Origin: a virus
Direction: 5' to 3' (one strand)
IMG/VR virus record: IMGVR_UViG_3300042691_045931
Coordinates: 1-21,721 of that record
DNA: 21,721 nt
Shown here: piece after piece, positions 214 through 21,587 of the stretch
Numbering within the stretch: position 1 is the first letter of the stretch
Layout: each line of letters starts with the position of its first letter
The notes under the pieces: generated by a model
Database searches by the model: none
The model's input: only the letters and a program-made list of their open reading frames with translations
Told to the model about the DNA's origin: nothing
Position numbers and translations under genes: made by a program

Positions 214-220
214 CAATTCT

Positions 221-2317: not shown

Positions 2318-2370
2318 AGGGGCCTCGGGTCCCTTTTTCCTCGTAGTGAACCTTATCTCTAAGGAGGAGA
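2318..2370 (+). promoter_or_regulatory. Module B: terminator, box and Shine-Dalgarno
   Basis: Stem aggggcc (2318-2324) pairs with ggtccct (2328-2334), followed by T-run 2334-2338, box cctcgtagtga (2339-2349) and AAGGAGGAG (2361-2369) before the ATG at 2373. The GTG inside the box (2346) opens the same frame, but it lies upstream of the SD and is not the start. Confidence 0.6.
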
Positions 2371-2372
2371 TT

Positions 2373-2975: not shown

Positions 2976-3110
2976 ATGAATACTAAACTATCAATTGTTA
3001 TTGCTGTCAGTGCCGTTTTACTAACATGCTCTGCCATCATTGGTGGAGTATACGTAGGCATTTGTCACAGTAACTACCCCGTGACGGCGTGCGAGGTAGA
3101 CAAAGAGTAG
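2976..3110 (+). CDS. Small cysteine-containing membrane protein, 44 aa (paralogue 1)
   Basis: The protein has a hydrophobic helix (residues about 5-28) that includes LLTCSAIIGGVY, then a short tail with two more cysteines (C30, C39) and an acidic end, VDKE. The LLTC stretch resembles a lipobox, but Thr at -1 is not canonical. The next gene is a clear paralogue sharing the C-x-AIIGGVY core, the two tail cysteines and the VDK end. That fits a short loop closed by a disulfide outside the membrane. AAGGAGGG precedes the ATG. Confidence 0.75.
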   Translation: MNTKLSIVIAVSAVLLTCSAIIGGVYVGICHSNYPVTACEVDKE

Positions 3111-3115
3111 TAGTT

Positions 3116-3170
3116 AAGGGGCCTGCCCAGGCCCCTTTTTCCTTCTAGTGATCTATAACCCTAGGAGGGA
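3116..3170 (+). promoter_or_regulatory. Module E: terminator, box and Shine-Dalgarno
   Basis: Stem aaggggcct (3116-3124) pairs with aggcccctt (3129-3137), then T-run, box ccttctagtga (3141-3151), TCTATAACCC and AGGAGGGA (3163-3170), before the ATG at 3173. This copy is close to the consensus. Confidence 0.6.
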
Positions 3171-3172
3171 TT

Positions 3173-3304
3173 ATGAAATACACATTATCTTACATAGCAG
3201 CTATTGCGGTAATTCTTGGCACATGCGGTGCCATCATTGGTGGAGTATACCATGAGGCCTGTTATGGGCCTCTACCTACCTCACTATGTAAGGTAGACAA
3301 ATAG
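3173..3304 (+). CDS. Small cysteine-containing membrane protein, 43 aa (paralogue 2)
   Basis: This is a paralogue of the gene just upstream. Both have a hydrophobic helix with GTCGAIIGGVY (TCSAIIGGVY in paralogue 1), two cysteines in the tail (C30, C39) at identical positions, and a VDK terminus. Sequence between those anchors has diverged (HEACYGPLPTSLC), while the second halves of their terminators are almost the same. The arrangement points to duplication of a whole module plus gene followed by divergence of the tail, which would be the exposed part. AGGAGGG sets the start. Function is unknown. Confidence 0.75.
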   Translation: MKYTLSYIAAIAVILGTCGAIIGGVYHEACYGPLPTSLCKVDK

Positions 3305-3312
3305 TAGTAGTT

Positions 3313-3365
3313 AAGGGGCCTGGGCAGGCCCCTTTTTCCTTCTAGTAGTTTATAATCCTAGGAGT
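3313..3365 (+). promoter_or_regulatory. Module F: terminator, box and Shine-Dalgarno
   Basis: Stem aaggggcct (3313-3321) pairs with aggcccctt (3326-3334), followed by T-run, box ccttctagtag (3338-3348), a TATAAT hexamer (3352-3357) and AGGAG (3360-3364). The TATAAT match suggests this copy could also serve a host sigma-70-type polymerase as a -10 element. Confidence 0.6.
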
Positions 3366-3370
3366 ACATC

Positions 3371-3886
3371 ATGAATGGTCTACAAATGGAGAAAGTAGTG
3401 TTGCGTGTGATTGAAGAATTAGGTTTTAAATGTCCCAAGCCCCGTGAGGTATGGGGGGAGGGTTACTTGTATAACGCCGCCCATGAGCTCGCGAATAAGC
3501 ATCTAGAGCTCAACTCCCGAGGCGGTGTCCTTCGTCGTCTCGTCCCCACTGATGATTGGGGAGTCCTAGACCGGGTATACAAGGTGGACGTAATAGTCTG
3601 CCAGTATACTGGGGAATTATGGGCTCTTCAGCTTACTACCGATGCCGAGGCGGTATATAAGAAGCTGGGCCAGCTTTATAGTACCGATAGTCTTCGTCTG
3701 GCTGTTGGCATCGCCAAGACCTGCTTGGTGGAGATTAAACCCCCTCAGCCTACCTGGGAGGGGCTCGGCCTGACTAGCCGGGTGGACCGAGATCATCTCG
3801 AGGAGTGCCTCTATGAGATGTTTGAGACAATAGAGAAGAGTGACAAGCTCTTTCACTACCAGCTAGATCTAAGCTGGTTAAAGTAA
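3371..3886 (+). CDS. Soluble protein, possible PD-(D/E)XK-like fold
   Basis: The gene encodes 171 residues with no membrane segment, starting at the ATG after AGGAG. A helix containing E39 is followed by a predicted strand pair with D73 (YKVDVIV) and ALQLTTD (Q87, T89). This order (helical acidic residue, D on a strand, then Q-x-T on the next strand) resembles atypical PD-(D/E)XK nucleases that have Q in place of E. The canonical lysine is absent, so it may be inactive, be a different fold, or use another residue. The rest is helical with a conserved-looking W-rich middle. It is the last gene of the tight series 2373-3886. Downstream lies a structured region rather than a simple terminator. 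The nuclease idea is inference only. Confidence 0.75.
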   Translation: MNGLQMEKVVLRVIEELGFKCPKPREVWGEGYLYNAAHELANKHLELNSRGGVLRRLVPTDDWGVLDRVYKVDVIVCQYTGELWALQLTTDAEAVYKKLGQLYSTDSLRLAVGIAKTCLVEIKPPQPTWEGLGLTSRVDRDHLEECLYEMFETIEKSDKLFHYQLDLSWLK

Positions 3887-4251: not shown

Positions 4252-4304
4252 GGGGAGTATATAGCTCCCCTTTTTCCTTCTGGTGAATTTTAGTCCCAGG
4301 AGGA
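4252..4304 (+). promoter_or_regulatory. Module H: terminator, box and Shine-Dalgarno (duplicate of module A)
   Basis: Stem ggggag (4252-4257) pairs with ctcccc (4265-4270), followed by T-run, box ccttctggtga (4276-4286) and AGGAGGA (4298-4304). The stretch 4267-4306 matches module A (176-215) base for base, although the genes they serve are unrelated. Confidence 0.65.
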
Positions 4305-4307
4305 CAC

Positions 4308-5066
4308 ATGTATAAAATCCTAGCAGCGTCAATCTACGCCGCATTACAGGCAGCGGGCGTCTACGTCCACCCAACGACGTGGGCGTTCATCTCGTACTAT
4401 TTCATGGGAGGTTCCCAGCCCCCGACTCTATCTGAAGCCGACATCGCTGAGACACGCGATGCGGTAATACGAAACCTCAAGGCTCGTCTTAAGGACGAAG
4501 GGGTAAGCCGCCGCTCTCTAGTTACTTTCGTGGACATAAATATAGAAAACGGTTGGTGGTCTTCTTTAAAGGGGGCCATCGGTAACTTCAACTACCGCAT
4601 TTTGGCGGTAGGTCCCGACACGATTAAGGTGGAGTGTCGTGACACGTGGAACTTCAATCCCAACTCTTATTTCCTAAAGCTACCCTGTTCGCCTCGTCTA
4701 GCGAGTGCAATATCTTCTCTGGCCAAGAAGGTAGGTATAGAGGTCTTCTACGAGAAAAATAAAAGAGAGCTAATTATCTGTGAAAAGGATCTGGTCAAGC
4801 TCAATCCTGGTCGTGCCTTCACGACCGTGTGGGAAGTAGAGGTACCCACAACGGAGGTAGTTCCTGAGTGGGCTACTTACTGGGAGGTGGCTACCTGGAA
4901 TGAGGGTAACTATGCCTTCATTCGGCCTCTTAAGTACGTGCCATTACCCCTCTGCCGCTACCAGCGGGGTAAAGGAGTTTATGTTGGACGGGACTACCAT
5001 CCCGACATCGATTACGTGTCGATGTTAGAAGCAGGTTGGGCTCCCGCTGTAGATTTACCTGAATAA
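4308..5066 (+). CDS. Unknown protein, 252 aa
   Basis: The start is the ATG 4 bases after AGGAGG. Residues 1-35 are hydrophobic and small-residue rich (AASIYAALQAAGVYV), which may be one membrane segment or a buried helix. An alpha/beta body follows, with SRRSLVTFVDINIENGWW, GNFNYRILAVGPDTIKV and a notable RDTWNFNPNSYF turn (near residues 110-122). The C-terminal half is rich in Trp and Tyr. No catalytic motif is convincing. The DTWNFNP element looks like a conserved family signature, but I cannot place it. As a stand-alone cassette with a duplicated module it belongs to the same island as the AcrIII-1 gene, so a counter-defence role is a guess from context. Confidence 0.8.
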   Translation: MYKILAASIYAALQAAGVYVHPTTWAFISYYFMGGSQPPTLSEADIAETRDAVIRNLKARLKDEGVSRRSLVTFVDINIENGWWSSLKGAIGNFNYRILAVGPDTIKVECRDTWNFNPNSYFLKLPCSPRLASAISSLAKKVGIEVFYEKNKRELIICEKDLVKLNPGRAFTTVWEVEVPTTEVVPEWATYWEVATWNEGNYAFIRPLKYVPLPLCRYQRGKGVYVGRDYHPDIDYVSMLEAGWAPAVDLPE

Positions 5067-5365: not shown

Positions 5366-6106
5366 ATGAGAAACAACAACAACGACAACCAGGCCTCTAA
5401 TCAAGCCTCTAACCAACCCACCAACTCCAAAAACTACGTATTTACCCTTAACGTAAGTCGCTCTGCCAGCACTAAGCCTGGCGTTGTTACTTACGTGCAC
5501 AATGGCGCTATCAAGCGCCGCCTGGATGGGTCTAGCTACTGGCTGGAGTTCCGGCTGATATCCAGTAAAAACGGAGAGGTACCTCTCACTACCTCCGATG
5601 GCCGTAGCTTATCTACAGCCGAGTTTGTAAAGCTTCTCTCCGGAGACGCCAGCGATGACGTGATAATGTCTGTAGAGTTATCTACAGATTTTGAAGACGG
5701 GTGGGACAGCTCGTGGGGGTGTGTAAAAGTTAGCTTCAGCGCGGAAGACCTCCGCGTTGGACGCGAAACGGAATACAAGGGCACAATAACCCAGTACTTT
5801 CACCTTGAAGGTGCGGAAATCCAACTTCATCGGGAAGTTGTCCGTCCGAAAATAGACCCGTCTATACTAGACGGGTTTGAGGGAACGGCAAAATCTAACG
5901 TGGTAACTACGGAACAGTTACATAGTAAAGCGGCCGCCCGCAAACGCAAACGGGAGGCTGCTAAGGCTGCACGAGATACTGCAGCAATAGTATCTAAGCC
6001 AGGTACTGTTGCTAAGTCAGTAGTAGCATCTGATGATACTGCTACTGATTGGGAAGTGCCGGCTGACCTATCAGTCGACATCGACATCAACGATCTACTT
6101 GACTAA
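5366..6106 (+). CDS. Unknown protein with Asn/Gln-rich start and acidic tail, 246 aa
   Basis: The ATG at 5366 is preferred over an upstream TTG at 5321, because that TTG would lie inside the terminator/box. The protein has a disordered Asn/Gln/Ser segment (residues 1-21), a beta-rich body (about 22-160), a very basic helix (SKAAARKRKREAAKAAR, 187-203), and a low-complexity tail ending DIDINDLLD. A beta domain followed by a flexible linker and an acidic tip is a layout also seen in single-stranded DNA-binding proteins, but no OB-fold signature is certain. There is no SD, like the next gene and the one at 11767. It lies directly before the polymerase gene, and both carry the box, so they may be co-regulated and cooperate. 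Confidence 0.8.
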   Translation: MRNNNNDNQASNQASNQPTNSKNYVFTLNVSRSASTKPGVVTYVHNGAIKRRLDGSSYWLEFRLISSKNGEVPLTTSDGRSLSTAEFVKLLSGDASDDVIMSVELSTDFEDGWDSSWGCVKVSFSAEDLRVGRETEYKGTITQYFHLEGAEIQLHREVVRPKIDPSILDGFEGTAKSNVVTTEQLHSKAAARKRKREAAKAARDTAAIVSKPGTVAKSVVASDDTATDWEVPADLSVDIDINDLLD

Positions 6107-6110
6107 TAAA

Positions 6111-6163
6111 AAGGGGCCCAAGCAGGGCCCCTTTTTCCTTTAGTGGCCCTATATTACCACTAA
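6111..6163 (+). promoter_or_regulatory. Module J: terminator and box upstream of the polymerase gene, no Shine-Dalgarno
   Basis: Stem aaggggccc (6111-6119) pairs with gggcccctt (6125-6133), followed by T-run and the box cctttagtggc (6137-6147), then CCTATATTACC. No AGGAGG lies before the ATG at 6166. If the box is the promoter read by the polymerase encoded downstream, this site would make its expression self-reinforcing. Confidence 0.6.
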
Positions 6164-6165
6164 CC

Positions 6166-9100
6166 ATGAGTACCATCAACTCTATCGTCTTTCAATCCAA
6201 TATTCTCGTAGCCTCTATCAGCGTCGCTATCATCGCAGGTGCTCCTACTACACGACGTGTAGGCCCTGGTCGCCGCGCTCAGCAGATAGCGAGCCGTCGC
6301 GCTAATCGCGTAGTACGCCGTCGCTCTCGTCGTATAGCGTCAGCCGGCCGCCCCATCCGCTCTCTACCTCAAAGTCAACGTCCCTGCGTTGTAAAATCAG
6401 CACGACGTGCGCTACGTCGTGCCGCAGCTGCCGCAGCTTCAGCCGCCCGCAAACCCGTATTACGTAACCGTAACGTCGTAGACAAACTTGTCTTACGACA
6501 ACGTAAGGCCAAACCTATACTGCGCGCTGTCAGCGCAGTATTTGCGCGTCCCTCGCGTTCTATTAGCACCGGCGCTAAAGCCGTTGCTACCGTAAATAAT
6601 GCTGCTGATAGTATTATCGCTGCCCTCGACCAAGGCCGCGTAAACTACCGCGGCAACGGCCGCACGTGTGTAGGCAAGAAGTACAAAACTAAAAACGCTA
6701 AAGCCGTTTTAGCGATAACTAAAGCTGCTAAAGCTACTGATAAAGCAGCACGCGTTAAACGCTGTATGAGCGTTGTAGTACCAGAATTACCAAGTGATGT
6801 ACTGGCTTGCCGCATGAGAATCGTAGGCAAACTATGCGGTGTGACCTTTGTACAAGGGGACATAGCGTCTTATTGTGACAATGTCGTTACTGTACCTTCA
6901 TTCGAAGATATATACGCGATAACTCACGAGCTTGTCCACCACTGCCAAGCTCTAGGTCTTACTGAAGACCTAGATATAGCTCTGGTGTCTGAGGCCGCTA
7001 TTGGCGCGGGCTCGGCTCAATGGCATGACACTAAATCTTACTACGAAGGTACTGAACACGAGAACGACGAATACGAAGCAGCTCTGCTTATGTACGACCC
7101 GGCATTAGTGGCCCGCCTCTTATGCACTCACTACCTCATGACCGCGTTTGTAGAAAGCGGGGCACCTGGTCCTGATGATATATGGATGGATGTAGTAGAT
7201 AGTTTAGATCCTGCGATTTGTCGTGAAGTCGTAGGTCTCGATGATCGCGTACTCGATTATAAAACCTATGGCGAATATGCTGAAGCCGTTGGATATGATG
7301 ACACTAATACGTTATTAGACTGGGAATTTGTCTTTAACAATAGTGTCAACAACGATAATGCTGTTGCGCTAACCATTCAAGCAATTGATGGTCTTATTGG
7401 TGCGGCGCCCGCAGCAGTAACTCCTACCCACCCGCTCTCTAACATAGGAGCCCCTACTAAGGGGTTAGAGAGTGATAGCTCCTCTAACAATACCACCAAC
7501 ACTAGCACTACCATGAAGAGCATTATCGAGATGTTAATTCCTGACCCTAGTACTCTCGGTGGAGTCGTGTCTCCTAAGCAGGAGGCGCGCATCACAGCAG
7601 CTCGTAAAGAGTTAACCCGCTTGTTTGGGGCTAATAACTTCGACCTTCTGCCTGAAGGTCCGATTCTCTATGTCGTATCTGGTTACAACCGTATGTGTAA
7701 GAAGTTCCTTGCGCTTCTAGACCATCGGGTTGTTTACACCACGGATTCTAAAATGAATCCTAAGGTCATTAACTTAGGTGTAACTAAGTCTATTCCCTAT
7801 GAAGACGACAAGCATACCTATACTACTAAGACCGAATGCTTAGTTAGCATGTATAGTGAGCACTTCCTCACTAAGTTAGCCACGTGGTCTGGTGACGATT
7901 TAGCCGCTCTTGTAGGCTGTCTATGTGTCAAGCAGCATCGTACTGTTAGTGTTGAGGGCCCCTGTGTGGTTATCAAAGGTAATAACCGCAGCACTACTTT
8001 CAACTTTAGTACAGGTAGCGTCAATGATGGTCGTCAGAGTCGCATCGCTAATGAACTCGTTAAAGTCGGAGGCAAAGACTACAGTGGTCGTGTAGCCCTT
8101 GTGGCGCTCTGTATGAAGGTAGCGTATAACGCCACTGGTGCGCGTGCTATCCTCAATGAGGTAACTAACCTGTGGCGCGAGGACATCAACTACGGCGCTC
8201 AGCCTAAAGAGGGTCAATCTCTATTTGAGATTAATCGCTGTATGTCCCGTCCTGTAGCGTTCAAGCCTTGGGATAAGGCCTTCCCCTTCCTGCAAGTGGA
8301 GAACGTTGGCCTCGCACCCAGCGATCTTGAATTGTCGCTCAAAGCCAATGTCATAGCAGCACCTGATAAATACAATGCAAAATGGATCGCTGTAGGTAAG
8401 GGTGCCAAGGCCATGTTCCTCGGACTTAAGGATAGTAAGATATACTCCATCCATGATTTTAGCAAGCCCACTAAGGTGTACAACCGTCCGCCTAGCTCGG
8501 GTAAATACACTCGTGCTGAGATTATAGATCGTCGTGATAGTCTACTTCGCGTTGATTTAGGTGATGGTAACTATAGTTGTGGTGGTGGCCTCTATCTACG
8601 CACCGCATTCACCAATAGCCGCTTTGGCTTTGGCAGTGGTGTTGCTGCTATACGCCGCGACCTTGAGTTCGAATACACCGTACCGAAGACCATTACTAAG
8701 GAGTTTCACGTACTCCGTATTCCTAGCTCAGTTCGCGCTCTTATGGCTGCTGATCTAGATGACCCCACGAGTAAACTCATGGAAGTCATCGAAGGCAAGA
8801 TAGAGAAAGCGAAGGGCCAGGTTTATGCTCCTGGTAACTCTATCATTAGCATTATGCAGGGCAAGTACTGCATAGTGAAGAACGAGACATTCGCGCAGGA
8901 CATCCGCGTAATAGGCGGGACTGTCACGCGTAATGGCGTCGAGGGCCGCGCTGATAGCGTCACTATTCGACTTGAGACCGAGATGGTGGGGCGCGACCAA
9001 GCCCTCAAACTCCGCGGTCTAGGTAAGAAGCTTACCACTCTTCCCTATGACGTTGAGGGACTATCTCAACCCTGGGATATCATCCTAAATAACGAGACCA

Positions 9101-11262
9101 CCAAGGGATGGCCCGCGCTCATAGAGATGTTCGCCATTGAGAAGGGGGGCTGCACCTATACTCCCGAAGGTGCGCTTCTCACCATCGATGATACTGGTGA
9201 AGTTATTGATCTTATGACTAAGAGTAATACCTTTACTGAGTGGGCTCAAGCCAAACTGGCTACTGATGATACTGGAGCCAGTGTTAAAGAGGTCATCTCC
9301 TTTGATATGGCCCGCGACCTGTGGGATTCCATCTCCTCCGTAGTAACTAACGATGACATCAAGGTAATCGACATCGACGATACCAGCGTCCGTATCGAAG
9401 AAACAGTAGAGGTTATATACGGCTATCTGCCATACGATATCGAGATAGCCACTCCTCGTGAGTCCGTAGCATTCTCCAAAATGACTATGGAGCAGATAGG
9501 TATTGTGGCTCTACAGAACCGCGGTTGGGGCGAAGCGCTCATGGAGGAGGTTAAATACGATAACGTCATGTCCATAGTTAGTATGATCACATCTAAGGAA
9601 TGTGATGCTTGTATTAACATCAGCACTACTGAGGGGCGTGACCATCTACGGGACATTATCGGCGTAGTTAACAACTATGTTTCTGATAGCACCCCTGGCA
9701 GTGACCGCAATCTGCTAGATCGTTTTGCTACCGTCTACCCCGATGGAGTGGATATCGTTGCTCAGAATAACGGTAATGAAGTCTCTCTTCATATCAATGG
9801 TAAGGCCCTAAGCGCGTTCGGTACCTTCTCTGGCGCCTCCGCTACTGGTATTATGCTAGACCTCTTGACACTGTTGGCCTACGTTACTGATGTAGGAATT
9901 GAAGACCAAAGCGGTTTGGATAGTAAAATCTACTCCATGACCGCTAAGGTCAGCCGCGGTTTACGCACATGGTGTAACACCATGGTTAAATCCAAAGGCA
10001 TTATGAAGAGTATGGCCCGCGCTGGCGATGTGGTCGTTGGTAAGGTCAAGACCAGCTATAGCCCCTTGCTCCATAGCGCTGATGGCGTGCCTGTAATTCT
10101 CATGCACCCCAATTGCCCTATGGTACGTATGCTTGGCATCGAAGAAGGTCAGGTTATTGGGATACAACGGACTCCTATGGGCTTCGTCCTATGCGGCCGC
10201 GTTAAGTTATCTACTACCGATGCCTTCGTCGCACACTACACAGTCAACCCTCTCCTATGGCACGCCGTTAACGAAGGCGATGCTGATGGTGACCAGTGCG
10301 GCGGCATTAATGCTCACAAATACGGTATCGACGCTGAGAGTGCCCTCACTATCAATGCTAGTCTCATGGGCATAGGCGGCTACTTCTACTGCTACGAAGC
10401 AGATGACCTGCCGTTCTTCGCCTTCATGAGCTATGAAGATAAGATAGGCAAGAAATCCCTCACTAAGTGGGATAAGCCTGTAGCTACTGCTATCGCTGTC
10501 GATAAGTACGTCAGCGACGCTGCTGAGGTGCACACGCATTATAAAGTAGCCGTAGGTGTTGGCTATGGTATCTGTTCTGCACTTGCCTTCCAAACCTGGG
10601 ATAGTATGTACCGTGCTAGCGGCGTCGATACCGACGCACTTAAAGCGTGTGTTATCGCCTGGCGTTTCGTCTATGAAAGCATGGGTCTCGGGGGCTATAC
10701 CCCTGAGGCTAAGATCTTCATGGCTACTTTAGTGCAAGCAGCCCGCGCCTGGGCTGCTGGCGTACCTATGTATAAGTCGTCGCAGGACGGGTTATACTAC
10801 TCTGCCAATTCCACTAAGCTTTTGGATACGGATCGCCAAGGAGGTGGTGTACCTCCTGCTCGGGCTATGGCTGACCTTATGCCCGCTAAGCTGGCTAAGG
10901 AGCCCGCGGTAATCTACCAGCTTATAAAGGCCCGCGCCCGTACTCTCACATACGGTGCTCTCGAACGGGGCAACTTCGCTCGCGAGAGCCTTATCATGTC
11001 ATCTGCCATATACGGAGCCTTCCGTCGTACTGGCCAGGGCCATGATCCTGTGGTTCCTATGACCCAGGATGACGCAGCCAGTTATGGCGCTGATGATATC
11101 GTCCCCGTTAGTGTGTTCGACATGGTAAGTGAGTTCCAACTCTCTAACTATGTCAGGAACCCTCAACTTAAGCAGCTGTTGGAAATCGCAACTGTTGTAC
11201 ATCTCGACCTCGGCGACTATAAACTAGAACTCGCTGAAGCTGAAGATCATCCTGATTTCTAA
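6166..11262 (+). CDS. Zincin metallopeptidase fused to a single-chain two-barrel RNA polymerase, 1698 aa
   Basis: The order of domains is as follows. Residues 10-27 are hydrophobic, and about 28-140 are Arg/Ala-rich and disordered. A zincin domain has HELVHH (H254, E255, H258) and a probable third ligand in EHENDEYEA (297-305). A Ser/Thr/Asn-rich linker (about 420-450) ends at an internal Met450. The polymerase follows. Near residues 943-975, KLRGLGKKL (K948, R950, K954, K955) and DIILN (from D971) match the beta-subunit barrel (HGNKG and DIVLNP in bacterial RNAP). At about 1330-1380, VIGIQRTPM, VNPLLW and NEGDADGDQ match the beta-prime barrel; D1372, D1374 and D1376 would bind the catalytic magnesium. 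The single chain recalls YonO-type and crAss-like phage polymerases. The peptidase is not part of those as I know them. It may cleave the precursor at the linker or act on a host protein. No SD precedes the ATG at 6166. Confidence 0.85.
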   Translation: MSTINSIVFQSNILVASISVAIIAGAPTTRRVGPGRRAQQIASRRANRVVRRRSRRIASAGRPIRSLPQSQRPCVVKSARRALRRAAAAAASAARKPVLRNRNVVDKLVLRQRKAKPILRAVSAVFARPSRSISTGAKAVATVNNAADSIIAALDQGRVNYRGNGRTCVGKKYKTKNAKAVLAITKAAKATDKAARVKRCMSVVVPELPSDVLACRMRIVGKLCGVTFVQGDIASYCDNVVTVPSFEDIYAITHELVHHCQALGLTEDLDIALVSEAAIGAGSAQWHDTKSYYEGTEHENDEYEAALLMYDPALVARLLCTHYLMTAFVESGAPGPDDIWMDVVDSLDPAICREVVGLDDRVLDYKTYGEYAEAVGYDDTNTLLDWEFVFNNSVNNDNAVALTIQAIDGLIGAAPAAVTPTHPLSNIGAPTKGLESDSSSNNTTNTSTTMKSIIEMLIPDPSTLGGVVSPKQEARITAARKELTRLFGANNFDLLPEGPILYVVSGYNRMCKKFLALLDHRVVYTTDSKMNPKVINLGVTKSIPYEDDKHTYTTKTECLVSMYSEHFLTKLATWSGDDLAALVGCLCVKQHRTVSVEGPCVVIKGNNRSTTFNFSTGSVNDGRQSRIANELVKVGGKDYSGRVALVALCMKVAYNATGARAILNEVTNLWREDINYGAQPKEGQSLFEINRCMSRPVAFKPWDKAFPFLQVENVGLAPSDLELSLKANVIAAPDKYNAKWIAVGKGAKAMFLGLKDSKIYSIHDFSKPTKVYNRPPSSGKYTRAEIIDRRDSLLRVDLGDGNYSCGGGLYLRTAFTNSRFGFGSGVAAIRRDLEFEYTVPKTITKEFHVLRIPSSVRALMAADLDDPTSKLMEVIEGKIEKAKGQVYAPGNSIISIMQGKYCIVKNETFAQDIRVIGGTVTRNGVEGRADSVTIRLETEMVGRDQALKLRGLGKKLTTLPYDVEGLSQPWDIILNNETTKGWPALIEMFAIEKGGCTYTPEGALLTIDDTGEVIDLMTKSNTFTEWAQAKLATDDTGASVKEVISFDMARDLWDSISSVVTNDDIKVIDIDDTSVRIEETVEVIYGYLPYDIEIATPRESVAFSKMTMEQIGIVALQNRGWGEALMEEVKYDNVMSIVSMITSKECDACINISTTEGRDHLRDIIGVVNNYVSDSTPGSDRNLLDRFATVYPDGVDIVAQNNGNEVSLHINGKALSAFGTFSGASATGIMLDLLTLLAYVTDVGIEDQSGLDSKIYSMTAKVSRGLRTWCNTMVKSKGIMKSMARAGDVVVGKVKTSYSPLLHSADGVPVILMHPNCPMVRMLGIEEGQVIGIQRTPMGFVLCGRVKLSTTDAFVAHYTVNPLLWHAVNEGDADGDQCGGINAHKYGIDAESALTINASLMGIGGYFYCYEADDLPFFAFMSYEDKIGKKSLTKWDKPVATAIAVDKYVSDAAEVHTHYKVAVGVGYGICSALAFQTWDSMYRASGVDTDALKACVIAWRFVYESMGLGGYTPEAKIFMATLVQAARAWAAGVPMYKSSQDGLYYSANSTKLLDTDRQGGGVPPARAMADLMPAKLAKEPAVIYQLIKARARTLTYGALERGNFARESLIMSSAIYGAFRRTGQGHDPVVPMTQDDAASYGADDIVPVSVFDMVSEFQLSNYVRNPQLKQLLEIATVVHLDLGDYKLELAEAEDHPDF

Positions 11263-11287: not shown

Positions 11288-11320
11288 GGGGCCACCTGGC
11301 CCCTTTTTCTTTTAGTGGAG
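11288..11320 (+). promoter_or_regulatory. Module K: terminator and box after the polymerase gene
   Basis: Stem ggggcca (11288-11294) pairs with tggcccc (11297-11303), followed by T-run and the box cttttagtgga (11309-11319). The next start codon is about 450 bases away, so transcription from this box would first cross the repeat region 11350-11730, giving a noncoding RNA or a long leader. Confidence 0.6.
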
Positions 11321-12470: not shown

Positions 12471-12554
12471 AGCCGACCTTATCGGAGGTCGGCTGATATA
12501 CGCCTCTCTATTAATAGAGAGGCGTATATATCGTTCTACTACAGAGAGAAGGAA
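12471..12554 (+). promoter_or_regulatory. Leader with hairpin and 34-bp perfect palindrome
   Basis: Stem agccgacct (12471-12479) pairs with aggtcggct (12486-12494), followed at once by a perfect 34-bp palindrome (12496-12529, centre TTAA). Then come a shared CTACTACAGAGAGAA stretch and the purine-rich GAGAGAAGGA before the ATG. The same arrangement, with a different palindrome, precedes the gene at 13517. A bidirectional terminator or an operator is possible. Confidence 0.6.
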
Positions 12555-13415
12555 ATGAACGCTATACCACACACAATAATATCTAGACAGGGCGTCGAAC
12601 AGAATAGAAGACAGTTTAAAGAACAACCCTTCGGGGAAGATTTGGGCAATGGCATCACCTTAGAAATGGTTGCCATCCCGGGGGGAACTTTCCTGATGGG
12701 TTCATCGCCAAATGAGAAAGATAGTTACGATGATGAACGCCCTCAACATGAGGTTACTGTCTCCACCTTTTTCATGGGTAAATACCCCATCACCCAGGCT
12801 CAGTGGAAAGAGGTTGCCTCTCGCACAGATTTAAAAGTTAAACAAGACCTTAATCTCAACCCGGCCCATTTTAAAGACCGTCCCGATAGTGATCGCCGCC
12901 CCGTAGAACAAGTCAACTGGTACGATGCCGTTGAATTTTGTGCGAGATTATCGAAACTGACGGGAAGGGAATACCGACTACCGAGTGAAGCGGAATGGGA
13001 ATACGCTTGTCGTGCTGGAACCACCCCCCCATTTCACTTTGGGGAAACCATTACGGGGGAATTGGCTAACTACCGTGCCAGCTATACCTACGCTGGAGAA
13101 CCGAAGGGAGAATATCGAGAAGAAACGACTCCCGTGGGACAATTTCCCCCCAATGCCTTCGGACTGTGCGATATGCATGGCAATGTCTGGAAATGGTGCG
13201 CCGATACTTGGCATGATAATTATGATGGTGCGCCGACGGATGGCAGTGCTTGGATAGAAAATGAGGATGATAATCATTCTTCTCTGCGGGGCGGTTCCTG
13301 GGGCTTCAATCCTGATAGCTGCCGTTCCGCGATTCGCGGCAGCAGCAACCGCCGCGACGTCTGCGGCAACGATGGCGGTTTTCGGGTGGTCTGCGTATTC
13401 AGAAGAACTCCCTAA
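12555..13415 (+). CDS. FGE-sulfatase/C-lectin fold protein, probable DGR target, 286 aa
   Basis: After about 20 residues shared with the following gene (NAIPHTIISRQGVEQNRRQF), the protein is a typical cyanobacterial FGE-sulfatase domain. It has MVAIPGGTFLMG, DDERPQHEVTV, YRLPSEAEWEYACRAGT, FGLCDMHGNVWKW and the C-terminal LRGGSW (from L244) ... CRSAIR ... GFRVV. Enzymatic FGEs make formylglycine in sulfatases. In this lectin-like subgroup the fold instead displays a variable ligand surface, diversified by a DGR reverse transcriptase. The codons at the exposed positions (13302-13376) almost all end in C or T, as expected if they derive from AAC/AAT in a template repeat. No reverse transcriptase or template repeat is in this window. 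The ATG at 12555 follows GAGAGAAGGA. Its codon use differs from the flanking genes, which suggests capture from a host. Confidence 0.85.
   Translation: MNAIPHTIISRQGVEQNRRQFKEQPFGEDLGNGITLEMVAIPGGTFLMGSSPNEKDSYDDERPQHEVTVSTFFMGKYPITQAQWKEVASRTDLKVKQDLNLNPAHFKDRPDSDRRPVEQVNWYDAVEFCARLSKLTGREYRLPSEAEWEYACRAGTTPPFHFGETITGELANYRASYTYAGEPKGEYREETTPVGQFPPNAFGLCDMHGNVWKWCADTWHDNYDGAPTDGSAWIENEDDNHSSLRGGSWGFNPDSCRSAIRGSSNRRDVCGNDGGFRVVCVFRRTP
13287..13394 (+). other. Putative DGR variable repeat (VR)
   Basis: This covers the RGGSW-to-FRVVC segment of the preceding gene. Framework codons (CGG GGC GGT TCC TGG, TGC CGT TCC GCG, TTT CGG GTG GTC TGC) alternate with sites coding G, F, N, D, S, I, V and C, whose codons all have a pyrimidine third base (GGC, TTC, AAT, GAT, AGC, ATT, GTC, TGC). 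That is the pattern left by adenine-specific mutagenesis of AAY codons. The template repeat is not present here. Confidence 0.6.
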
Positions 13416-13917: not shown

Positions 13918-14196
13918 ATGCTGCCATTTAAAGAGTTTCGGAAGCAATCCTTCAGCCATCACCTTAGAAATAGTTGTCATACCGGGGGGATCCCCCTTGA
14001 TCGCGAGGGCGCTGATTCCCCTCGATTTTGGGATAAAGCTGATCGCTTGATGGTGGTGACGGTAGGAGGTGCAGCCCTAGGTGGATCAATTGCGGGAGTT
14101 TACGGTGCGGTTATTGGGCCACCGGTCCAGAGTATTGTCTGTATAAATTTAACCAAGACCGAGACAGAGGTTCTGGGTGCATTGGTTTTCGAATAG
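13918..14196 (+). CDS. Hypothetical 92-aa protein containing an out-of-frame FGE relic
   Basis: The frame begins MLPFKEFRKQSF, resembling the MLSFEEF start of the two genes downstream. Bases 13955-13990 match 12650-12686 of the FGE gene in about 32 of 36 positions, but the frame used here reads SHHLRNSCHTGG rather than ITLEMVAIPGG. Residues about 43-65 (MVVTVGGAALGGSIAGVYG) form a glycine-zipper-like hydrophobic helix. The gene therefore appears to be assembled from pieces. It may be expressed from the ATG at 13918 or from a later start just before the helix (TTG, about 14047). There is no strong SD. It may be a pseudogene remnant. Confidence 0.45.
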   Translation: MLPFKEFRKQSFSHHLRNSCHTGGIPLDREGADSPRFWDKADRLMVVTVGGAALGGSIAGVYGAVIGPPVQSIVCINLTKTETEVLGALVFE

Positions 14197-14223
14197 TTTG
14201 TGATTAATCAATCAGTAATCAGT

Positions 14224-14306
14224 TATCAGTAATCAAGATTTAATCTATCAACAGGAGATGTTATGCTATCATTTGAAGAGTTTCAGAACCAGGTCTTAAA
14301 AGTATT
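14224..14306 (+). repeat. 83-bp direct repeat, copy 1 (leader and gene start)
   Basis: This is identical to 14593-14675. It covers TATCAGTAATCAAG spacer DNA, the SD CAGGAGAT and the first 44 bases of the gene at 14263. The upstream TATCAGT-type tandem motif resembles spacer repeats common in Microcystis-like genomes. Confidence 0.85.
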
Positions 14307-14580
14307 TAAATGCACCAAAGAAGAATGTGAGTTTTGGGATTCTTCTTATTATTTCTCGGCATTAATTAATTACACCAATGGCCATTATTTATTCTTTAGA
14401 GTCAGATATGTAACAAACCCTGAAAACTGTAATTATGGTCGTTGGATCGTTATAAAAGAATACGACAAAGCTTACAGAAACATTTCAGATTCTTTGATGC
14501 AAGCAATAAAAGTTGTTGCACAAAAAACAGAAGAAAGCATCAAGGAAGAAAATGCTATCTTTAAAAAAATAGAAGAGTAA
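14263..14580 (+). CDS. Unknown 105-aa protein, tandem copy 1
   Basis: The protein starts MLSFEEFQNQVLKVF after CAGGAG. A beta-strand core (ALINYTNGHYLFFRVRYVTNPENCNYGRWIVIKEYD) and a C-terminal helix (SDSLMQAIKVVAQKTEESIKEE) follow. It looks like a small alpha-beta protein of the immunity-protein or SMI1-like size range, but I recognise no family. The gene is markedly AT-richer than the surrounding DNA, which points to a different origin. The next gene is a diverged duplicate. Confidence 0.75.
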   Translation: MLSFEEFQNQVLKVFKCTKEECEFWDSSYYFSALINYTNGHYLFFRVRYVTNPENCNYGRWIVIKEYDKAYRNISDSLMQAIKVVAQKTEESIKEENAIFKKIEE

Positions 14581-14592
14581 TTGGTTATCAGC

Positions 14593-14675
14593 TATCAGTA
14601 ATCAAGATTTAATCTATCAACAGGAGATGTTATGCTATCATTTGAAGAGTTTCAGAACCAGGTCTTAAAAGTATT
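14593..14675 (+). repeat. 83-bp direct repeat, copy 2
   Basis: A perfect copy of 14224-14306, offset by 369 bases. The downstream parts of the two genes are diverged, so the identical 83 bases are younger than the rest or are kept by gene conversion. Confidence 0.85.
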
Positions 14676-14949
14676 CGGTGCCTCTAAAAGAGAGTGTGAT
14701 TTTTATAATTTCTCGTACGGTTTCGTTGCAGAAATTAGTTACACTAATTGCCAGTGGTTATTTTTTGCAGTCAAATATGTAACAGACCCTGAAAACTGTT
14801 ACTATGGCCACTGGATTTGTGTTAAAAGATATGACAAGGCCTGTAAGTGTATTACTGAGTTATTGCCTCAAGCAATAGAAGTTCTTGCACAAAGAACAGA
14901 GGAAAGTATAAAAGAAGAAATTGCTGTTTTTAACCAATTAAAGAAGTAA
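14632..14949 (+). CDS. Unknown 105-aa protein, tandem copy 2
   Basis: The gene has the same length as copy 1. The first 14-15 residues are identical, and the middle retains SYTN, VKYVTDPENCYYGHW and AIEVLAQRTEESIKEE. Replacements are concentrated at residues 15-45, including changes of Cys, Trp and Lys. Tandem duplicates that keep the scaffold and vary a patch are typical of immunity or inhibitor proteins adapted to different partners, but this is inference. CAGGAG precedes the ATG. The next gene begins 14 bases after the stop. Confidence 0.75.
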   Translation: MLSFEEFQNQVLKVFGASKRECDFYNFSYGFVAEISYTNCQWLFFAVKYVTDPENCYYGHWICVKRYDKACKCITELLPQAIEVLAQRTEESIKEEIAVFNQLKK

Positions 14950-17612: not shown

Positions 17613-18134
17613 ATGAAACTCAAGATCAAATTAACTCGTAAAACATCAAACAAGCAGGTCACCTTTACCTTCACCGAAAAGGGCAACGCGGTGCTAACCG
17701 GCACCTGTGTGGGGGCCTCTGACTATCATTTGAAGCTAGCAAACGGTGGTTCTGTCGACGCTAGTGATCTAGCCGTCGGGCTAACTGTCAATGTAGTATT
17801 CTCTTCGCGCGATGCTCAGAGTGCAGTCGAGAGTATAGCCTCGGCCTATGAGGAATATGGAAACGGTAGCCCATTTATCACGATGGTGATTGAATGTAAG
17901 ACCAAGAAGCCTACGGCTGAAGGTAACCTCATAATCATGATGGCAGACATCACATCAGTTAATTATGAGGCGATGAATGATGATACCCTCGTGACCGAGG
18001 ATGAGTTAGATATGCTCTTCCAGAAGGGGGCAGGAACTAAGGGAGCAAGTGGAGCAGCGCGTGAAGCAAGTGTTCCTACTTCAGGTGCTCCCAACTGTTT
18101 CAACCGTAAGGTAACTCTCCAAGAGAGACACTAA
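17613..18134 (+). CDS. Unknown 173-aa protein, paralogue of the next gene
   Basis: The protein has a beta-rich N-terminal half (MKLKIKLTRKTSNKQVTFTF, GNAVLTGTCVGASDYHLKLA), a middle helix (SAVESIASAYEEYG) and PFITMVIECK. The end is acidic (DDTLVTEDELDMLFQKG) followed by a low-complexity tail of about 33 residues not shared by its neighbour (GTKGASGAAREASVPTSGAP and onward). GAGGTG lies 7 bases before the ATG. A hairpin (18178-18204) separates it from the paralogue at 18232. An OB-like or SH3-like beta fold is possible. No family recognised. Confidence 0.75.
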   Translation: MKLKIKLTRKTSNKQVTFTFTEKGNAVLTGTCVGASDYHLKLANGGSVDASDLAVGLTVNVVFSSRDAQSAVESIASAYEEYGNGSPFITMVIECKTKKPTAEGNLIIMMADITSVNYEAMNDDTLVTEDELDMLFQKGAGTKGASGAAREASVPTSGAPNCFNRKVTLQERH

Positions 18135-18166
18135 TAGAGAGCTAGAGTATAAATTACACGGCTCGC
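18132..18166 (+). repeat. Direct repeat after the first paralogue (TAATAGAGAGCTAGAGTA ... TAAATTACACGGC)
   Basis: It overlaps the stop region of the first paralogue and recurs at 18678-18718 after the second, with a small insertion there. The duplication thus includes the 3' flank of the gene. Confidence 0.7.
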
Positions 18167-18177
18167 CGAGGGGAAGA

Positions 18178-18204
18178 GTGACCCTCTACTAGGTAGAGGG
18201 TCAC
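18178..18204 (+). terminator. 12-bp perfect hairpin
   Basis: gtgaccctctac (18178-18189) pairs with gtagagggtcac (18193-18204) around a TAG loop. The following bases are cccatc, not a T-run, so its terminator role is uncertain. It may isolate the two paralogues or act as a leader structure for the second. Confidence 0.4.
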
Positions 18205-18231
18205 CCCATCAAATAATTAAGCAGGACTGCC

Positions 18232-18666
18232 ATGAAACCAAGAATGAAACTAAGAATCAAATTAACCCGTTCGAGTGAAACCAAACAAGTTACATTTACG
18301 ACTAACCGCAGCGGCAACGCCGTATTAACTGGAACTTGCGTTGGAGCACAAGACTATTACTTGGAGTTAGCAGACGGCCGTTCTATTGATATCAGTGAGC
18401 TGGCCATTGGTATGATTGTCAACCTAGTGTTCCCGCATAGCAATTATATAGCCAAGAGCGTAGCTGATGGCTACAAGATGTATGGAAATGATAACCCATT
18501 CATCACGATGGTGATTGAATGTAAAATCAAAGAACCCACGGCTGAGGATAATATCATAATCATGGAGGACGACATTGACTCCGTTTATTATGAGGCCTGT
18601 AGTAGTGATGACACCCTCATTCACGAGGGAGATATAAATGTGCTCTTCCAAAAGGTGACCATGTAA
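18232..18666 (+). CDS. Unknown 144-aa protein, paralogue of the previous gene
   Basis: The protein aligns with the preceding one almost from end to end (MKLRIKLTR, QVTFTT, GNAVLTGTCVGAQDY, IGMIVNLVF, PFITMVIECKIKEPTAEDN, DDTL, LFQK). It has three extra N-terminal residues, a diverged helix near residues 69-82 and no low-complexity tail. The conserved cores TGTCVGA and FITMVIECK probably mark the structural framework. The upstream SD is weak (CAGGAC). Duplicated genes with differing tails suggest related partners or a two-subunit assembly. Function is unknown. Confidence 0.75.
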   Translation: MKPRMKLRIKLTRSSETKQVTFTTNRSGNAVLTGTCVGAQDYYLELADGRSIDISELAIGMIVNLVFPHSNYIAKSVADGYKMYGNDNPFITMVIECKIKEPTAEDNIIIMEDDIDSVYYEACSSDDTLIHEGDINVLFQKVTM

Positions 18667-19491: not shown

Positions 19492-20181
19492 TCACACGTA
19501 AGCAGCCTGCTCCCTCCTGAAGATATCAAGTAGGGGATCGATAGTAGATCTAAGGCCAGCCATGAGATGACGAGCTGCATTAGTAGGTAGGCCCCGCCAC
19601 CAGCGCTGCACCTTCTCCTGAGCCCAATCGAGGCCCAACCGCGTCATAGTGCACTGTAGTGTGCGCTCAAGCAGGCGGGTGAACTGAGCGAGGGGGCGTA
19701 TATCACCACTATCGGTACCGTAGTGTGCTACCCACTGAGAGGGGTCAGCGATAACCTCAGGATTCTGAGTAGCGTGGGCCAGGAGCTTATTCTCGATGGG
19801 GCTCACGTACCAGAGATTACTATAGTCGTTATTAGAGGTATCACCATCGAGGTGATGTACCTCCATGAGGCCCGCGCGGCAGACCTCACCGCGGCGTTCT
19901 CGTCTCCAACCAGCGGCGGGCCGCCTATCAATGTAGAGCACTATCTGGTGAACATATACCAACTCCTTACGGACGTTAGTGCAGTGGAACGCGAAGAAGC
20001 GACACTGCTCGAGATAGTCGAATAGCCGCTTATTCTCCTTAGCGAGAACGTACTGGTAGCCACTGGCATTGGTACGAATAGTGGCAGCCGCGAGATAACG
20101 GCGGGCCCCGCCTAGCATAATATACATGGCGTGATAAGATGGACGAGGTTCGAATCCGCTACTTGAATATTTTGTTTCCAT
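19492..20181 (-). CDS. HNH homing-type endonuclease, 229 aa
   Basis: Residues 107-136 read EVHHLDGDTSNNDYSNLWYV followed by SPIENKLLAH. This is the HNH motif: H109/H110, the N117-N118 turn, N122 and H136, of the kind found in free-standing phage homing endonucleases (HNH_3-like). The N-terminal part is alpha-beta. The C-terminal 80 residues are helical with Trp/Arg (WAQEKVQRWWRGLP) and may bind DNA. It is the only gene on the minus strand, a sign of independent insertion. The assigned ATG (20179-20181) has only a distant AAGGAAGG. An internal start at MYIML (residue 19) is possible. Its own 5' side is the hairpin array 20223-20552. There is no RuvC-like domain, so it is not a full IscB. Confidence 0.8.
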   Translation of the reverse strand: METKYSSSGFEPRPSYHAMYIMLGGARRYLAAATIRTNASGYQYVLAKENKRLFDYLEQCRFFAFHCTNVRKELVYVHQIVLYIDRRPAAGWRRERRGEVCRAGLMEVHHLDGDTSNNDYSNLWYVSPIENKLLAHATQNPEVIADPSQWVAHYGTDSGDIRPLAQFTRLLERTLQCTMTRLGLDWAQEKVQRWWRGLPTNAARHLMAGLRSTIDPLLDIFRREQAAYV

Positions 20182-20222
20182 ATGTTATACTGGGGGTATT
20201 CCTTCCTTTTTTACTACTGTGT

Positions 20223-20253
20223 TGCCGGGAGCCCCCACGATGGGCCCCCGGCA
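20223..20253. terminator. GC-rich hairpin, terminator-like
   Basis: tgccgggagccc (20223-20234) pairs with gggcccccggca (20242-20253) in 11 of 12 positions, then attttctt. On the + strand it looks like a terminator; it also forms the upstream edge of the hairpin array and lies 42 bases before the HNH start on the - strand. Confidence 0.5.
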
Positions 20254-20552
20254 TTTTCTTATCTCTGGGTCCCCCCTCCATCGGAGGCCGGGATCGAGAG
20301 ATAAGAAAATGCCCTACAGATGCATATCCCCCCTCCATCGGAGGCCGGGACGCCATCTATAGGGCATTTGATTATCCGTTGATCGCGGGTCCCCCCCTCC
20401 ATCGGAGGCCGGGGTCGCAATCTAGGGATAGGTTCAACCTACTGGCCAGATATTCAGTAGGTCTAGATCATGCTCACTGACCAGATATTCAGTGAGCACT
20501 AGCATATCTATATTATACATCGAAATTATCGTCGTGGCAATAATGCCGATGT
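20250..20552. ncRNA. Array of hairpins with conserved caps and variable stems
   Basis: Three hairpins share a 22-base cap (CCCCCCTCCATCGG start; 20271-20292, 20328-20349, 20392-20413) but have unrelated stems: 17 bp (20250-20266 with 20297-20313), 15 pairs plus a G-U (20307-20322 with 20354-20369), and a weaker third (20373-20387 with about 20416-20430). Two smaller hairpins share the loop CCAGATATT with different outer stems (20437-20462, 20471-20498). A nested stem follows (20517-20552). Stems that differ yet still pair imply selection for structure. Bases 20307-20313 can pair with either of two partners, so two folds exclude each other. No known RNA family is recognised. Confidence 0.6.
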
Positions 20553-21257
20553 ACTAATTAGCGAGGAAGGCCCGGGCTCTAGGAACCCTCGATGGCCATA
20601 GGTGGTGCTATCTGGGCGCCGGCCGCATCTCTGTGAAGGGGGGTGATGTATTAGGCTAATTTTGTGGATATGCTAGCAAGATGGGCCTAAATAGTCTAGC
20701 GGCCGCACCTCTATAATCCAATACATCCATTATACCACGCCCCTGCAGTGGTGTCAACCCCAACATTGAGGATACAGTCAACTAACATAAGGCCCGCGGT
20801 ATAACGGTACGCGGCCGGTGTAGCTCAGTATTGAGGCCATACTGTCACGATGGTGGGCTCTACTACGGTATAAGGAACCAGTGTATAAGCTCAGCTACTG
20901 TTATATACCAATGCATATGGGGCCCGCGATGTTATAACACAGTGGGCCCTGCGGTAGAGGGGGGCCCGCTCTATAATCAGGCGGCCCCTTCCCTCCTCGT
21001 GGACTATCAATATAAGGAAGACAAGGACATGACGACTGAACTATGTTGATCGTGTAGGTATTACCGCCACCCCTTCCGTGGTGGCCCCCTCCTTATAACA
21101 GCCCCCTTATAACCACTCTCATAAGGGCGAGGGGCAGAGCAGGTATAGAACAGGGACTATCCGCGAGCCCCAATTAGAATAATGGACACAATAGTGCCAT
21201 ACGATAGTCTAGGCGGCCAAATGATAGTATAATAGTGCCAATATAATAGAACAGCCA
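20553..21257. other. About 700 bases with no confident gene
   Basis: Only weak open frames occur (one of 72 codons at 20831-21049 has no ribosome site and odd composition). There is a short direct repeat GGCCGCAYCTCTRTR (about 20627 and 20702) and a possible gatgtatt/aatacatc stem (about 20646-20655 with 20721-20730). The gccac/gtggc stem near 21065-21084 and the cccttat/ataaggg stem near 21107-21127 are likely transcript ends. GGCCC and CTAG are unusually frequent. It may be a regulatory or replication region, but no iteron set is convincing. Confidence 0.4.
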
Positions 21258-21488: not shown

Positions 21489-21587
21489 GGCCCACCACAG
21501 GCCCACAACAGCTAATCAGAGGGACCCATCCTAGAGTTTCAATCCCTAGTAGGGATTAAGTTAGCTGTTGTGGGCCTGTGGTGGGCC
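21489..21587. repeat. Perfect 27-bp inverted repeat enclosing a CRISPR-repeat-like loop
   Basis: The arm 21489-21515 (begins GGCCCACCACAGGCCC) is the exact reverse complement of 21561-21587. The loop is 45 bases (21516-21560). There is no T-run after the right arm, so it is not a simple terminator; a further GC stem (21584-21590 with 21603-21609) and a CCAATAATTTATTGG palindrome (21608-21622) follow. Confidence 0.9.
21536..21560 (-). CRISPR. Solitary CRISPR-repeat-like unit
   Basis: On the - strand the sequence reads CTTAATCCCTACTAGGG followed by ATTGAAAC. It has the internal aatccct/agggatt dyad and the ATTGAAAC end (crRNA 5' handle) of cyanobacterial type III-B and I-D repeats, and it resembles a Microcystis-type repeat as I remember it. 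There is only one copy and no cas genes, so it is not an array. A degenerate extension may run into 21561-21572. It could be a decoy repeat (RNA anti-CRISPR), a captured repeat or chance. Confidence 0.5.

What the first reader, a model, noticed from the sequence alone, without database searches (positions are those of the whole stretch)
20250..20552. Hairpins with constant caps and interchangeable stems
Three hairpins share a 22-base cap but have different paired stems (17 bp, 15 bp plus a G-U, and a weaker third), and two more share the loop CCAGATATT with different outer stems. Keeping pairing while sequence changes is direct evidence for a selected fold. The cap sequence may be a protein-binding element repeated in series. 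I know of no RNA family with this layout.
Basis: seen in the sequence. Interest (0 to 1): 0.75.

Follow-up and report, generated by a model that had tools for sequence, protein, structure and literature searches.

The report
Conserved hairpin RNA in Microcystis phage
A row of hairpins in a virus of bloom-forming cyanobacteria is probably the end of a highly conserved non-coding RNA gene, but one of the three matching hairpins looks like a by-product of DNA copying and not a selected RNA fold.

Summary
The hairpins are real. The window is a fragment of a Fukuivirus (Ma-LMM01/MaMV-type Microcystis phage). H1-H3 share a cap, H4-H5 a loop.

H2-H5 lie in a non-coding block, 20315-20757, the best-conserved 443-nt stretch of the window against two relatives (0 of 300 and 0 of 351 other windows reach it). 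Two conserved sigma-70 promoter matches (12/12, 11/12) read it on the minus strand; in MaMV-DC 3 of the genome's 4 sites of at least 11/12 lie here, one way. I read it as a structured minus-strand RNA of 200-430 nt; transcription and function are inferred.

H1 differs: its arms are the facing T-rich tails of two opposed terminator-like hairpins, its cap is missing in three isolates and inverted in Ma-LMM01. Arm homogenisation plus loop inversion is the signature of template switching, so H1 is no direct proof of a selected fold. Among H2-H5 orthologues no pair has a two-sided change (0 of 63).

Ma-LMM01 has a small CRISPR array instead, with a spacer matching relatives' RNA block.

The parts
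20729..20757 (-). Promoter P1, TTGACA-N17-TATAAT with TG before the second hexamer; start site expected near 20722
   Evidence: 12/12 consensus; 12/12 in 8 and 11/12 in 3 (DL01, CH01, CH02) of the 11 distinct haplotypes that reach it; no site of at least 11/12 on the plus strand of the locus
20512..20540 (-). Promoter P2, TTGCCA-N17-TATAAT; start site expected near 20505, just before H5; lies inside an inverted repeat (H6)
   Evidence: 11/12; same score in all 11 haplotypes scanned that reach it, and both hexamers visible in a twelfth, A_42386; Ma-LMM01 lacks the region
20516..20553 (-). H6, inverted repeat overlapping P2
   Evidence: RNAalifold consensus; two one-sided changes, both kept as G-U on minus
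20471..20498 (-). H5, hairpin with CCAGATATT loop
20437..20462 (-). H4, hairpin with CCAGATATT loop; absent in MaMV-CH01/CH02
20373..20430 (-). H3, capped hairpin
20307..20369 (-). H2, capped hairpin; on minus it is followed by TTTTCTTAT, so a candidate intrinsic terminator of the minus-strand RNA
   Evidence: terminator role inferred
20250..20313 (.). H1, capped palindrome between two opposed terminator-like hairpins; its arms are their T-rich tails; cap missing in MaMV-DC/CH01/CH02, inverted in Ma-LMM01
20224..20263 (+). H0, GC-rich hairpin (20224-20252) followed by ATTTTCTTATC: candidate terminator of plus-strand transcription from the early-gene side
   Evidence: early genes gp054-gp063 from PMC5780444 and gene order
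20315..20757 (-). Best-conserved 443-nt stretch of the window, non-coding; proposed RNA gene
   Evidence: 95.5% to MaMV-DC, 97.5% to B28429; 0 of 300 and 0 of 351 windows elsewhere as high
19492..20181 (-). HNH endonuclease gene (gp051 homologue) downstream of the hairpins on the same strand
   Evidence: PF13392 E 3.6e-6; phrog_28475
21489..21587 (.). Palindrome with 27-bp arms; its 45-nt loop holds a CRISPR-repeat-like segment and is inverted in MaMV-DH01 and MaMV-DC

Best explanation
H2-H5 are the 3' half of a structured non-coding RNA encoded on the minus strand of Fukuivirus genomes. Host sigma-70-type RNA polymerase starts at P1 and/or P2 (a third such promoter, P3, lies further upstream in relatives), reads through H6, H5, H4 and H3, and stops at H2, giving an RNA of about 200 nt (from P2) or 430 nt (from P1). 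The repeated caps (two in the RNA) and the repeated CCAGATATT loops (two) most likely form a serial binding platform that titrates a host or phage factor. H1 lies beyond the end of this RNA: it is the space between the plus-strand terminator H0 and the minus-strand terminator H2, made of their two tails and kept palindromic largely by template switching. Shown here: conservation, promoter matches and their direction, predicted fold, absence of a convincing reading frame, H1 variation. Inferred: transcription, termination at H2, action in trans, a bound factor.
For: Best-conserved 443-nt window of the contig and non-coding. Promoters P1 and P2 on minus only, conserved, and 3 of the 4 sites of at least 11/12 in the 169-kb MaMV-DC genome are in this locus in one direction. 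Minus-strand fold z -7.0 for 20293-20506, 0 of 200 shuffles as good. H2-H5 pairs standard in 99.7% of 685 cells over 11 distinct sequences, against 40-48% when slid. The same pairs are standard in 736 of 740 cells on minus but 683 of 740 read on plus. H2, H3 and H5 are kept as folds in the isolates where H1 has lost its cap.
Against: No transcript evidence. Ma-LMM01, the phage with published RNA-seq, lacks the block. No two-sided change among orthologues (0 of 63 pairs), so the fold is not proven by covariation. The strand preference of one-sided changes is confounded: C/T differences also outnumber A/G differences at unpaired sites, 8 to 3, and each strand's own optimal fold fits equally well (99.4% of cells on both). 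Much of the conserved block (20546-20728) has none of the repeated hairpins. P2 lies inside an inverted repeat and may be accidental. H2 is a long hairpin with an internal cap, not a classical terminator. The block is dispensable in Ma-LMM01. Exchange of this segment between strains could also make it look conserved.
Confidence: 0.45

Rival explanations
1. The promoters serve the HNH endonuclease gene, and the hairpins are its long structured 5' leader or attenuator that limits its expression.
For: All promoters point at the HNH gene, which is 92-96% identical at DNA level in all 8 relatives compared and has no promoter match of at least 9/12 of its own just upstream on the minus strand. In Ma-LMM01, where H2-H5 are gone, a 12/12 promoter still points at it.
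Against: H2 with its T-rich tail and GC-rich H0 lie between the promoters and the gene; the block is better conserved than the gene; leaders of more than 300 nt are unusual (general knowledge).
Confidence: 0.25
2. The array works as DNA: cruciforms or single-strand hairpins used in replication, recombination or packaging, kept palindromic by template switching.
For: Loop inversions at three palindromes of the locus: H1 (twice), 21489-21587 and the P3 spacer; both strands fold; Ma-LMM01 encodes a Holliday junction resolvase and a UvsX-like recombinase by annotation.
Against: GC-skew extremes lie elsewhere: 75045 and 126334 in Ma-LMM01, 83991 and 134649 in MaMV-DC. Ma-LMM01 does without H2-H5. 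Wherever they are present, the caps of H1-H3 keep one orientation in every haplotype but Ma-LMM01.
Confidence: 0.15
3. The RNA is a counter-defence or inter-phage competition element, for example an inhibitor of host CRISPR-Cas.
For: Ma-LMM01 has a CRISPR mini-array in its place, whose first spacer matches this block in relatives at 34-35 of 36 positions in 8 of 10 other sequences and 30 of 32 in the other 2, and is antisense to the proposed RNA. MaMV-DL01/CH01/CH02 carry two exact host repeats just upstream of P1.
Against: The hairpin block resembles none of seven Microcystis CRISPR repeats beyond chance (93 to 279 of 300 shuffles as good), so it is not a repeat mimic of the Racr kind.
Confidence: 0.08
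4. The capped hairpin is a small mobile or dispersed repeat that inserted several times.
For: One cap on different stems; the cap is present or absent in H1 of different strains.
Against: With up to 3 mismatches the cap occurs nowhere else in six complete isolate genomes; the covariance model finds it only in this locus of Ma-LMM01 and MaMV-DC; the genome collection gave 8 scattered hits, none in a cyanobacterium.
Confidence: 0.03

Closest known systems
Hairpins shaped by replication template switching (arm homogenisation and spacer inversion; PMC8604942, PMC8794818)
   Same: Both arms change together between lineages and the loop flips orientation, seen in H1; loop flip also in the 21489-21587 palindrome
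   Different: H2-H5 show neither two-sided changes nor loop flips
Phage-encoded structured small RNAs in general (recalled)
   Same: Non-coding, strong host-type promoters, multi-hairpin, terminator-like end
   Different: No Rfam match; the layout of repeated cap and repeated loop was not found in any named family I could search
Serial protein-titrating RNAs such as CsrB/RsmY (recalled)
   Same: A short motif presented on several hairpins in a row
   Different: GGA is in the stem, not the loop; the minus-strand cap loop is GAU
Virus-borne mini-CRISPR arrays (PMC6858448) for the Ma-LMM01 version of the locus
   Same: Host-type repeats, 1-2 spacers, promoter upstream, intergenic, spacers matching close relatives near the array's own site
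   Different: Lytic cyanophage instead of archaeal virus; interference not shown

Membership tests
Any Rfam family | Score at or above the family's gathering threshold | tested here: not met
   0 matches in the whole window; only sub-threshold matches in 20180-20780
Structured RNA proven by covariation | Two-sided compensatory changes among orthologues | tested here: not met
   0 of 63 pairs in H2-H5; 0 of 134 over the longer transcript
Template-switch-shaped inverted repeat (H1) | Arm homogenisation together with loop inversion between lineages | tested here: met
   H1 arms differ in step between lineages, cap inverted in Ma-LMM01, loop inverted between MaMV-CH01 and CH02
Intrinsic terminator, H0 (+) and H2 (-) | GC-rich stem followed by a T run | tested here: inconclusive
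   Both followed by ATTTTCTTATC in the window; H0 short and GC-rich; H2 long and not covered by the scan, which allows loops of 3-8
Sigma-70 promoter P1/P2 | TTGACA, 16-18 nt, TATAAT | tested here: met
   12/12 and 11/12; activity not tested
CsrB/RsmY-type sponge | GGA in hairpin loops | tested here: not met
   Cap loop is GAU on minus and ATC on plus; GGA lies in the stem
Racr (RNA anti-CRISPR, PMC10651486) | Mimics a host CRISPR repeat | tested here: not met
   No similarity beyond shuffles to seven Microcystis repeats
Mobile or dispersed hairpin element | Copies at several genomic sites | tested here: not met
   Only this locus
Replication origin or terminus | Extreme of cumulative GC skew | tested here: not met
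   Extremes elsewhere in two complete genomes; initiation itself not testable here
Mini-CRISPR array (Ma-LMM01 version of the locus) | Host-type repeats, promoter-bearing leader, 1-2 spacers against close relatives | tested here: met
   3 repeats at 36/37 to the Microcystis type I-D repeat, 12/12 promoter, spacer 1 at 34-35/36 in 8 of 10 other sequences; activity not tested

The most novel reading that the evidence does not exclude
Fukuiviruses devote one of their strongest host-type promoter clusters to a structured decoy RNA with serial identical caps, a new RNA family. The locus is contested between related phages: Ma-LMM01 has swapped the RNA for a CRISPR mini-array whose spacer is antisense to the RNA of its relatives.
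Probability: 0.2. Interest if true: 0.78.

Novelty: new variant of a known kind. Interest (0 to 1): 0.52.

Why it matters
If transcribed, this is a non-coding RNA better conserved than any other stretch of the window, in phages of a bloom-forming toxic cyanobacterium, and it is not annotated as an RNA in the phage records whose tables I read. The H1 result is a clear example of paired changes in a DNA palindrome that should not be read as proof of an RNA fold. The same locus holds host-type CRISPR repeats in four of six isolates examined, which makes inter-phage CRISPR conflict in a lytic cyanophage testable.

Tried and rejected
Rfam at gathering and relaxed thresholds: nothing. tRNA/tmRNA: none. 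Dispersed element: rejected. CCAGATATT motif in other viral contigs: two single hits in non-homologous contigs. Plasmid collection: only a 26-nt chance hit. GC-skew test for an origin: negative in two genomes. Homology of the three stems by shuffles: weak and uneven. H1/H3 5' arms share TTATCCCT in MaMV-DH01 (p about 0.01 on the 5' arm, 0.05 on the 3' arm); of 14 arm comparisons, 6 had p at or below 0.05 before any correction, so common descent of the stems by tandem duplication is possible but not shown. Strand preference from G-U pairs: 7 of 8 informative one-sided changes in the local palindromes H2, H3, H5, H6 favour minus, but mutation direction confounds it. CRISPR-repeat mimicry by the hairpins: rejected. 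The published Ma-LMM01 transcriptome has no mention of gp048-gp051 or intergenic or non-coding RNA in its main text, and that phage lacks H2-H5 anyway. Structure of part of the large gp064-like protein: model useless (mean pLDDT 30.5), not searched further.

Rows left out: Ma-LMM01 from alignments A1 and A2 because it lacks the block; IMG/VR 3300042386 (A_42386) from A2 because its contig ends early, and it was not in the scan; MaMV-DL02 was never fetched; AB231700 and NC_029002 are duplicate records. Thirteen distinct haplotypes came from 18 entries. In the promoter scan several of the 21 entries are second pieces of the same contig or identical haplotypes. The covariance model was built from 9 hairpins of 5 haplotypes.

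Full report
WHAT THE WINDOW IS. G000 is a 21,721-base IMG/VR record. Its largest protein (window 6166-11262) is 87-89% identical to one hypothetical protein in nine records of Microcystis phages of the Ma-LMM01/MaMV type, genus Fukuivirus, and the hairpin region itself matches the same nine records. Seventeen IMG/VR loci from the protein search and thirteen stretches from the cap search are relatives, in part the same contigs.

THE OBSERVATION. The caps, stems and loops are as described. The 341-base region folds with z -9.2 (plus) and -9.8 (minus), with 0 of 100 shuffles as good on either strand. H1 and H2 overlap by 7 bases.

SURROUNDINGS. Genes on the plus strand run to 19411, then an HNH endonuclease gene lies on minus (19492-20181), then the hairpins. 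By gene order in Ma-LMM01, the plus-strand genes include the homologues of gp054-gp063, which are the early genes in the published transcriptome (PMC5780444, passages). In Ma-LMM01 and MaMV-DC the locus lies in a zone where two gene clusters converge. H0 (20224-20252) followed by ATTTTCTTATC looks like a plus-strand terminator; H2 read on minus is followed by the same T-rich tail.

CONSERVATION. Thirteen distinct haplotypes were aligned from 18 entries. The non-coding stretch 20315-20757 is 95.5% identical to MaMV-DC and 97.5% to IMG/VR 3300028429; no other 443-nt window of the contig reaches these values (0 of 300 and 0 of 351 windows that were more than 95% aligned; medians 86.7% and 88.7%). 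Neighbouring genes range from 69% to 99%. No convincing open reading frame covers the block, and single-base indels occur in it. Ma-LMM01 lacks the block: only 8% of it aligns.

PROMOTERS. On the minus strand P1 is a 12/12 sigma-70 match with TG before the second hexamer, and P2 an 11/12 match; the scan found 4 promoter-like sites in 2.3 kb against 2.7 expected, so it is the quality and conservation of these two that count, not the number of weak sites. All 11 scanned haplotypes other than Ma-LMM01 keep both at 11/12 or better; Ma-LMM01 keeps only a further upstream promoter, P3, at 12/12. No plus-strand site of at least 11/12 occurs in any of the 21 entries. In the 169-kb MaMV-DC genome, 3 of 4 sites of at least 11/12 are in this locus, all in the same direction; three mononucleotide shuffles gave 1, 2 and 5 sites genome-wide. 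In Ma-LMM01, 1 of 7 sites is here, with 0, 3 and 2 in shuffles.

FOLD EVIDENCE IN H2-H5. Over 12 sequences (11 distinct) 63 pairs were counted: 56 never vary, 5 vary on one side and stay paired as G-U on minus, 2 are broken in MaMV-CH01/CH02 (which are identical here), and none has a two-sided change. Cells paired are 99.7%, against 40-48% when partners are slid; that control is partly circular because the structure was derived from these sequences, and the shuffle control is uninformative here because no pair varies on both sides. The same pairs read on plus are standard in 683 of 740 cells against 736 of 740 on minus. This favours a minus-strand RNA, but C/T differences are commoner than A/G also at unpaired sites (8 to 3), so it is a hint, not proof. 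A covariance model of H2/H3 finds matches only in this locus of two complete phage genomes and of other phage loci; the remaining weak matches are short core matches in loci fetched for the cap 18-mer.

H1 IS A DIFFERENT THING. In the window-type lineage its arms are TTTTCTTATCTCT and the complement. In the B-type contigs, DH01 and DL01 they are TTTACTTATCCCTG and the complement, with a longer GC-rich inner part. In MaMV-DC it is a 19-bp palindrome with no cap; in CH01 and CH02 the cap is also absent and the small loop is inverted between the two; in Ma-LMM01 the cap is present but inverted. One-sided mismatches also occur (B_42367, Ma-LMM01, CH01/CH02). The 45-nt loop of the palindrome at 21489-21587 is inverted in DH01 and DC relative to the window, A42882 and A31857, and the P3 spacer of DC carries an inverted GGGG/CCCC core. 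Joint arm change plus loop inversion is the described outcome of template switching between inverted repeats (PMC8604942 abstract; PMC8794818 passages). In every lineage with H2 the two arms coincide with the T-rich tails of H0 (plus) and H2 (minus); in Ma-LMM01 only the tail remains, H2 itself being gone. So H1 gives no clean evidence for a selected RNA fold, and its cap is dispensable.

MECHANISM. I commit to a minus-strand structured RNA from P1/P2 to H2, acting as a serial binding platform (confidence 0.45 for the RNA reading as a whole; the trans function is inference). The main rival is a long leader of the HNH gene, since all promoters point at it and it has no good promoter of its own in the window. 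A DNA-level role is less likely because Ma-LMM01 does without H2-H5 and GC skew marks other places.

A CONTESTED LOCUS. In Ma-LMM01 the block is replaced by three repeats (36/37 to the Microcystis type I-D repeat tabulated in PMC4428289) behind a 12/12 promoter, with spacers of 36 and 33 nt. Spacer 1 matches 8 of 10 other Fukuivirus sequences at 34-35 of 36 positions and the remaining two (window, A8120) at 30 of 32, always inside the proposed P1 RNA, to which it is antisense. Spacer 2 matches H1 arms, including those of Ma-LMM01 itself. MaMV-DL01, CH01 and CH02 carry two repeats with one 39-nt spacer just upstream of P1 (exact over the 27 bases searched; exact over 37 in DL01 and CH01); that spacer matches the P3 promoter region, including their own, so self-matching exists. 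The protospacer-1 flank is GCC; from memory the type I-D motif is GTH, so interference is unproven. The layout resembles the mini-CRISPR arrays of archaeal viruses, which target relatives near the array's own site (PMC6858448, abstract and passages); a Nostoc phage with a CRISPR array is also known (PMC4916379, passages). Searches listed no paper that by title or opening abstract treats CRISPR repeats inside Ma-LMM01 or MaMV genomes; the Ma-LMM01 and MaMV-DC genome papers were not read. The Ma-LMM01 record itself annotates part of this as a '56 bp repeat unit'.

NOVELTY. No Rfam family; no RNA annotated here in the phage records whose tables I read. A new phage RNA candidate of a known general kind, in an unusual setting.

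Noticed in passing
L042/NC_008562 35708-35961; L045, L046, L047 just upstream of P1: Host-type CRISPR mini-arrays in Microcystis phages: Ma-LMM01 with 3 repeats and spacers matching relatives' RNA block and H1 arms; MaMV-DL01, CH01 and CH02 with 2 repeats and one spacer matching the P3 promoter region.
   Followed up: partly
window 21489-21587: Palindrome with perfect 27-bp arms whose loop contains a type I-D CRISPR-repeat-like segment (0 of 300 shuffles as similar) and is inverted in MaMV-DH01 and MaMV-DC.
   Followed up: partly
window 6166-11262: 1698-aa protein with NEGDADGDQ, reminiscent (recalled) of the NADFDGD motif of RNA polymerase beta'. No Pfam match; a PDB sequence search of its part 9466-10866 found nothing meaningful; the AlphaFold model was useless. 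Worth a deeper profile search, since the transcriptome paper infers host polymerase in all phases.
   Followed up: partly
window 176-222, 2706-2763, 3105-3178, 3302-3375, 4267-4313, 6101-6140, 11289-11317: Recurrent intergenic cassette: GC-rich hairpin, TTTTTCCTTC run, then AGGAGG-like ribosome site before the next gene.
   Followed up: no
window 12540-13415: Formylglycine-generating-enzyme-like protein (PF03781, E 1.9e-62); a 45-nt stretch of its gene (12653-12697) recurs at 82% identity at 13957-14001.
   Followed up: no
window 2346-2696: STIV B116-like protein (PF08960, E 1.9e-12), a family named after an archaeal virus protein, in a cyanophage.
   Followed up: no
window 14210-14878 and 17613-18666: Two tandemly duplicated gene pairs (stretches 76% and 71-76% identical).
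   Followed up: no
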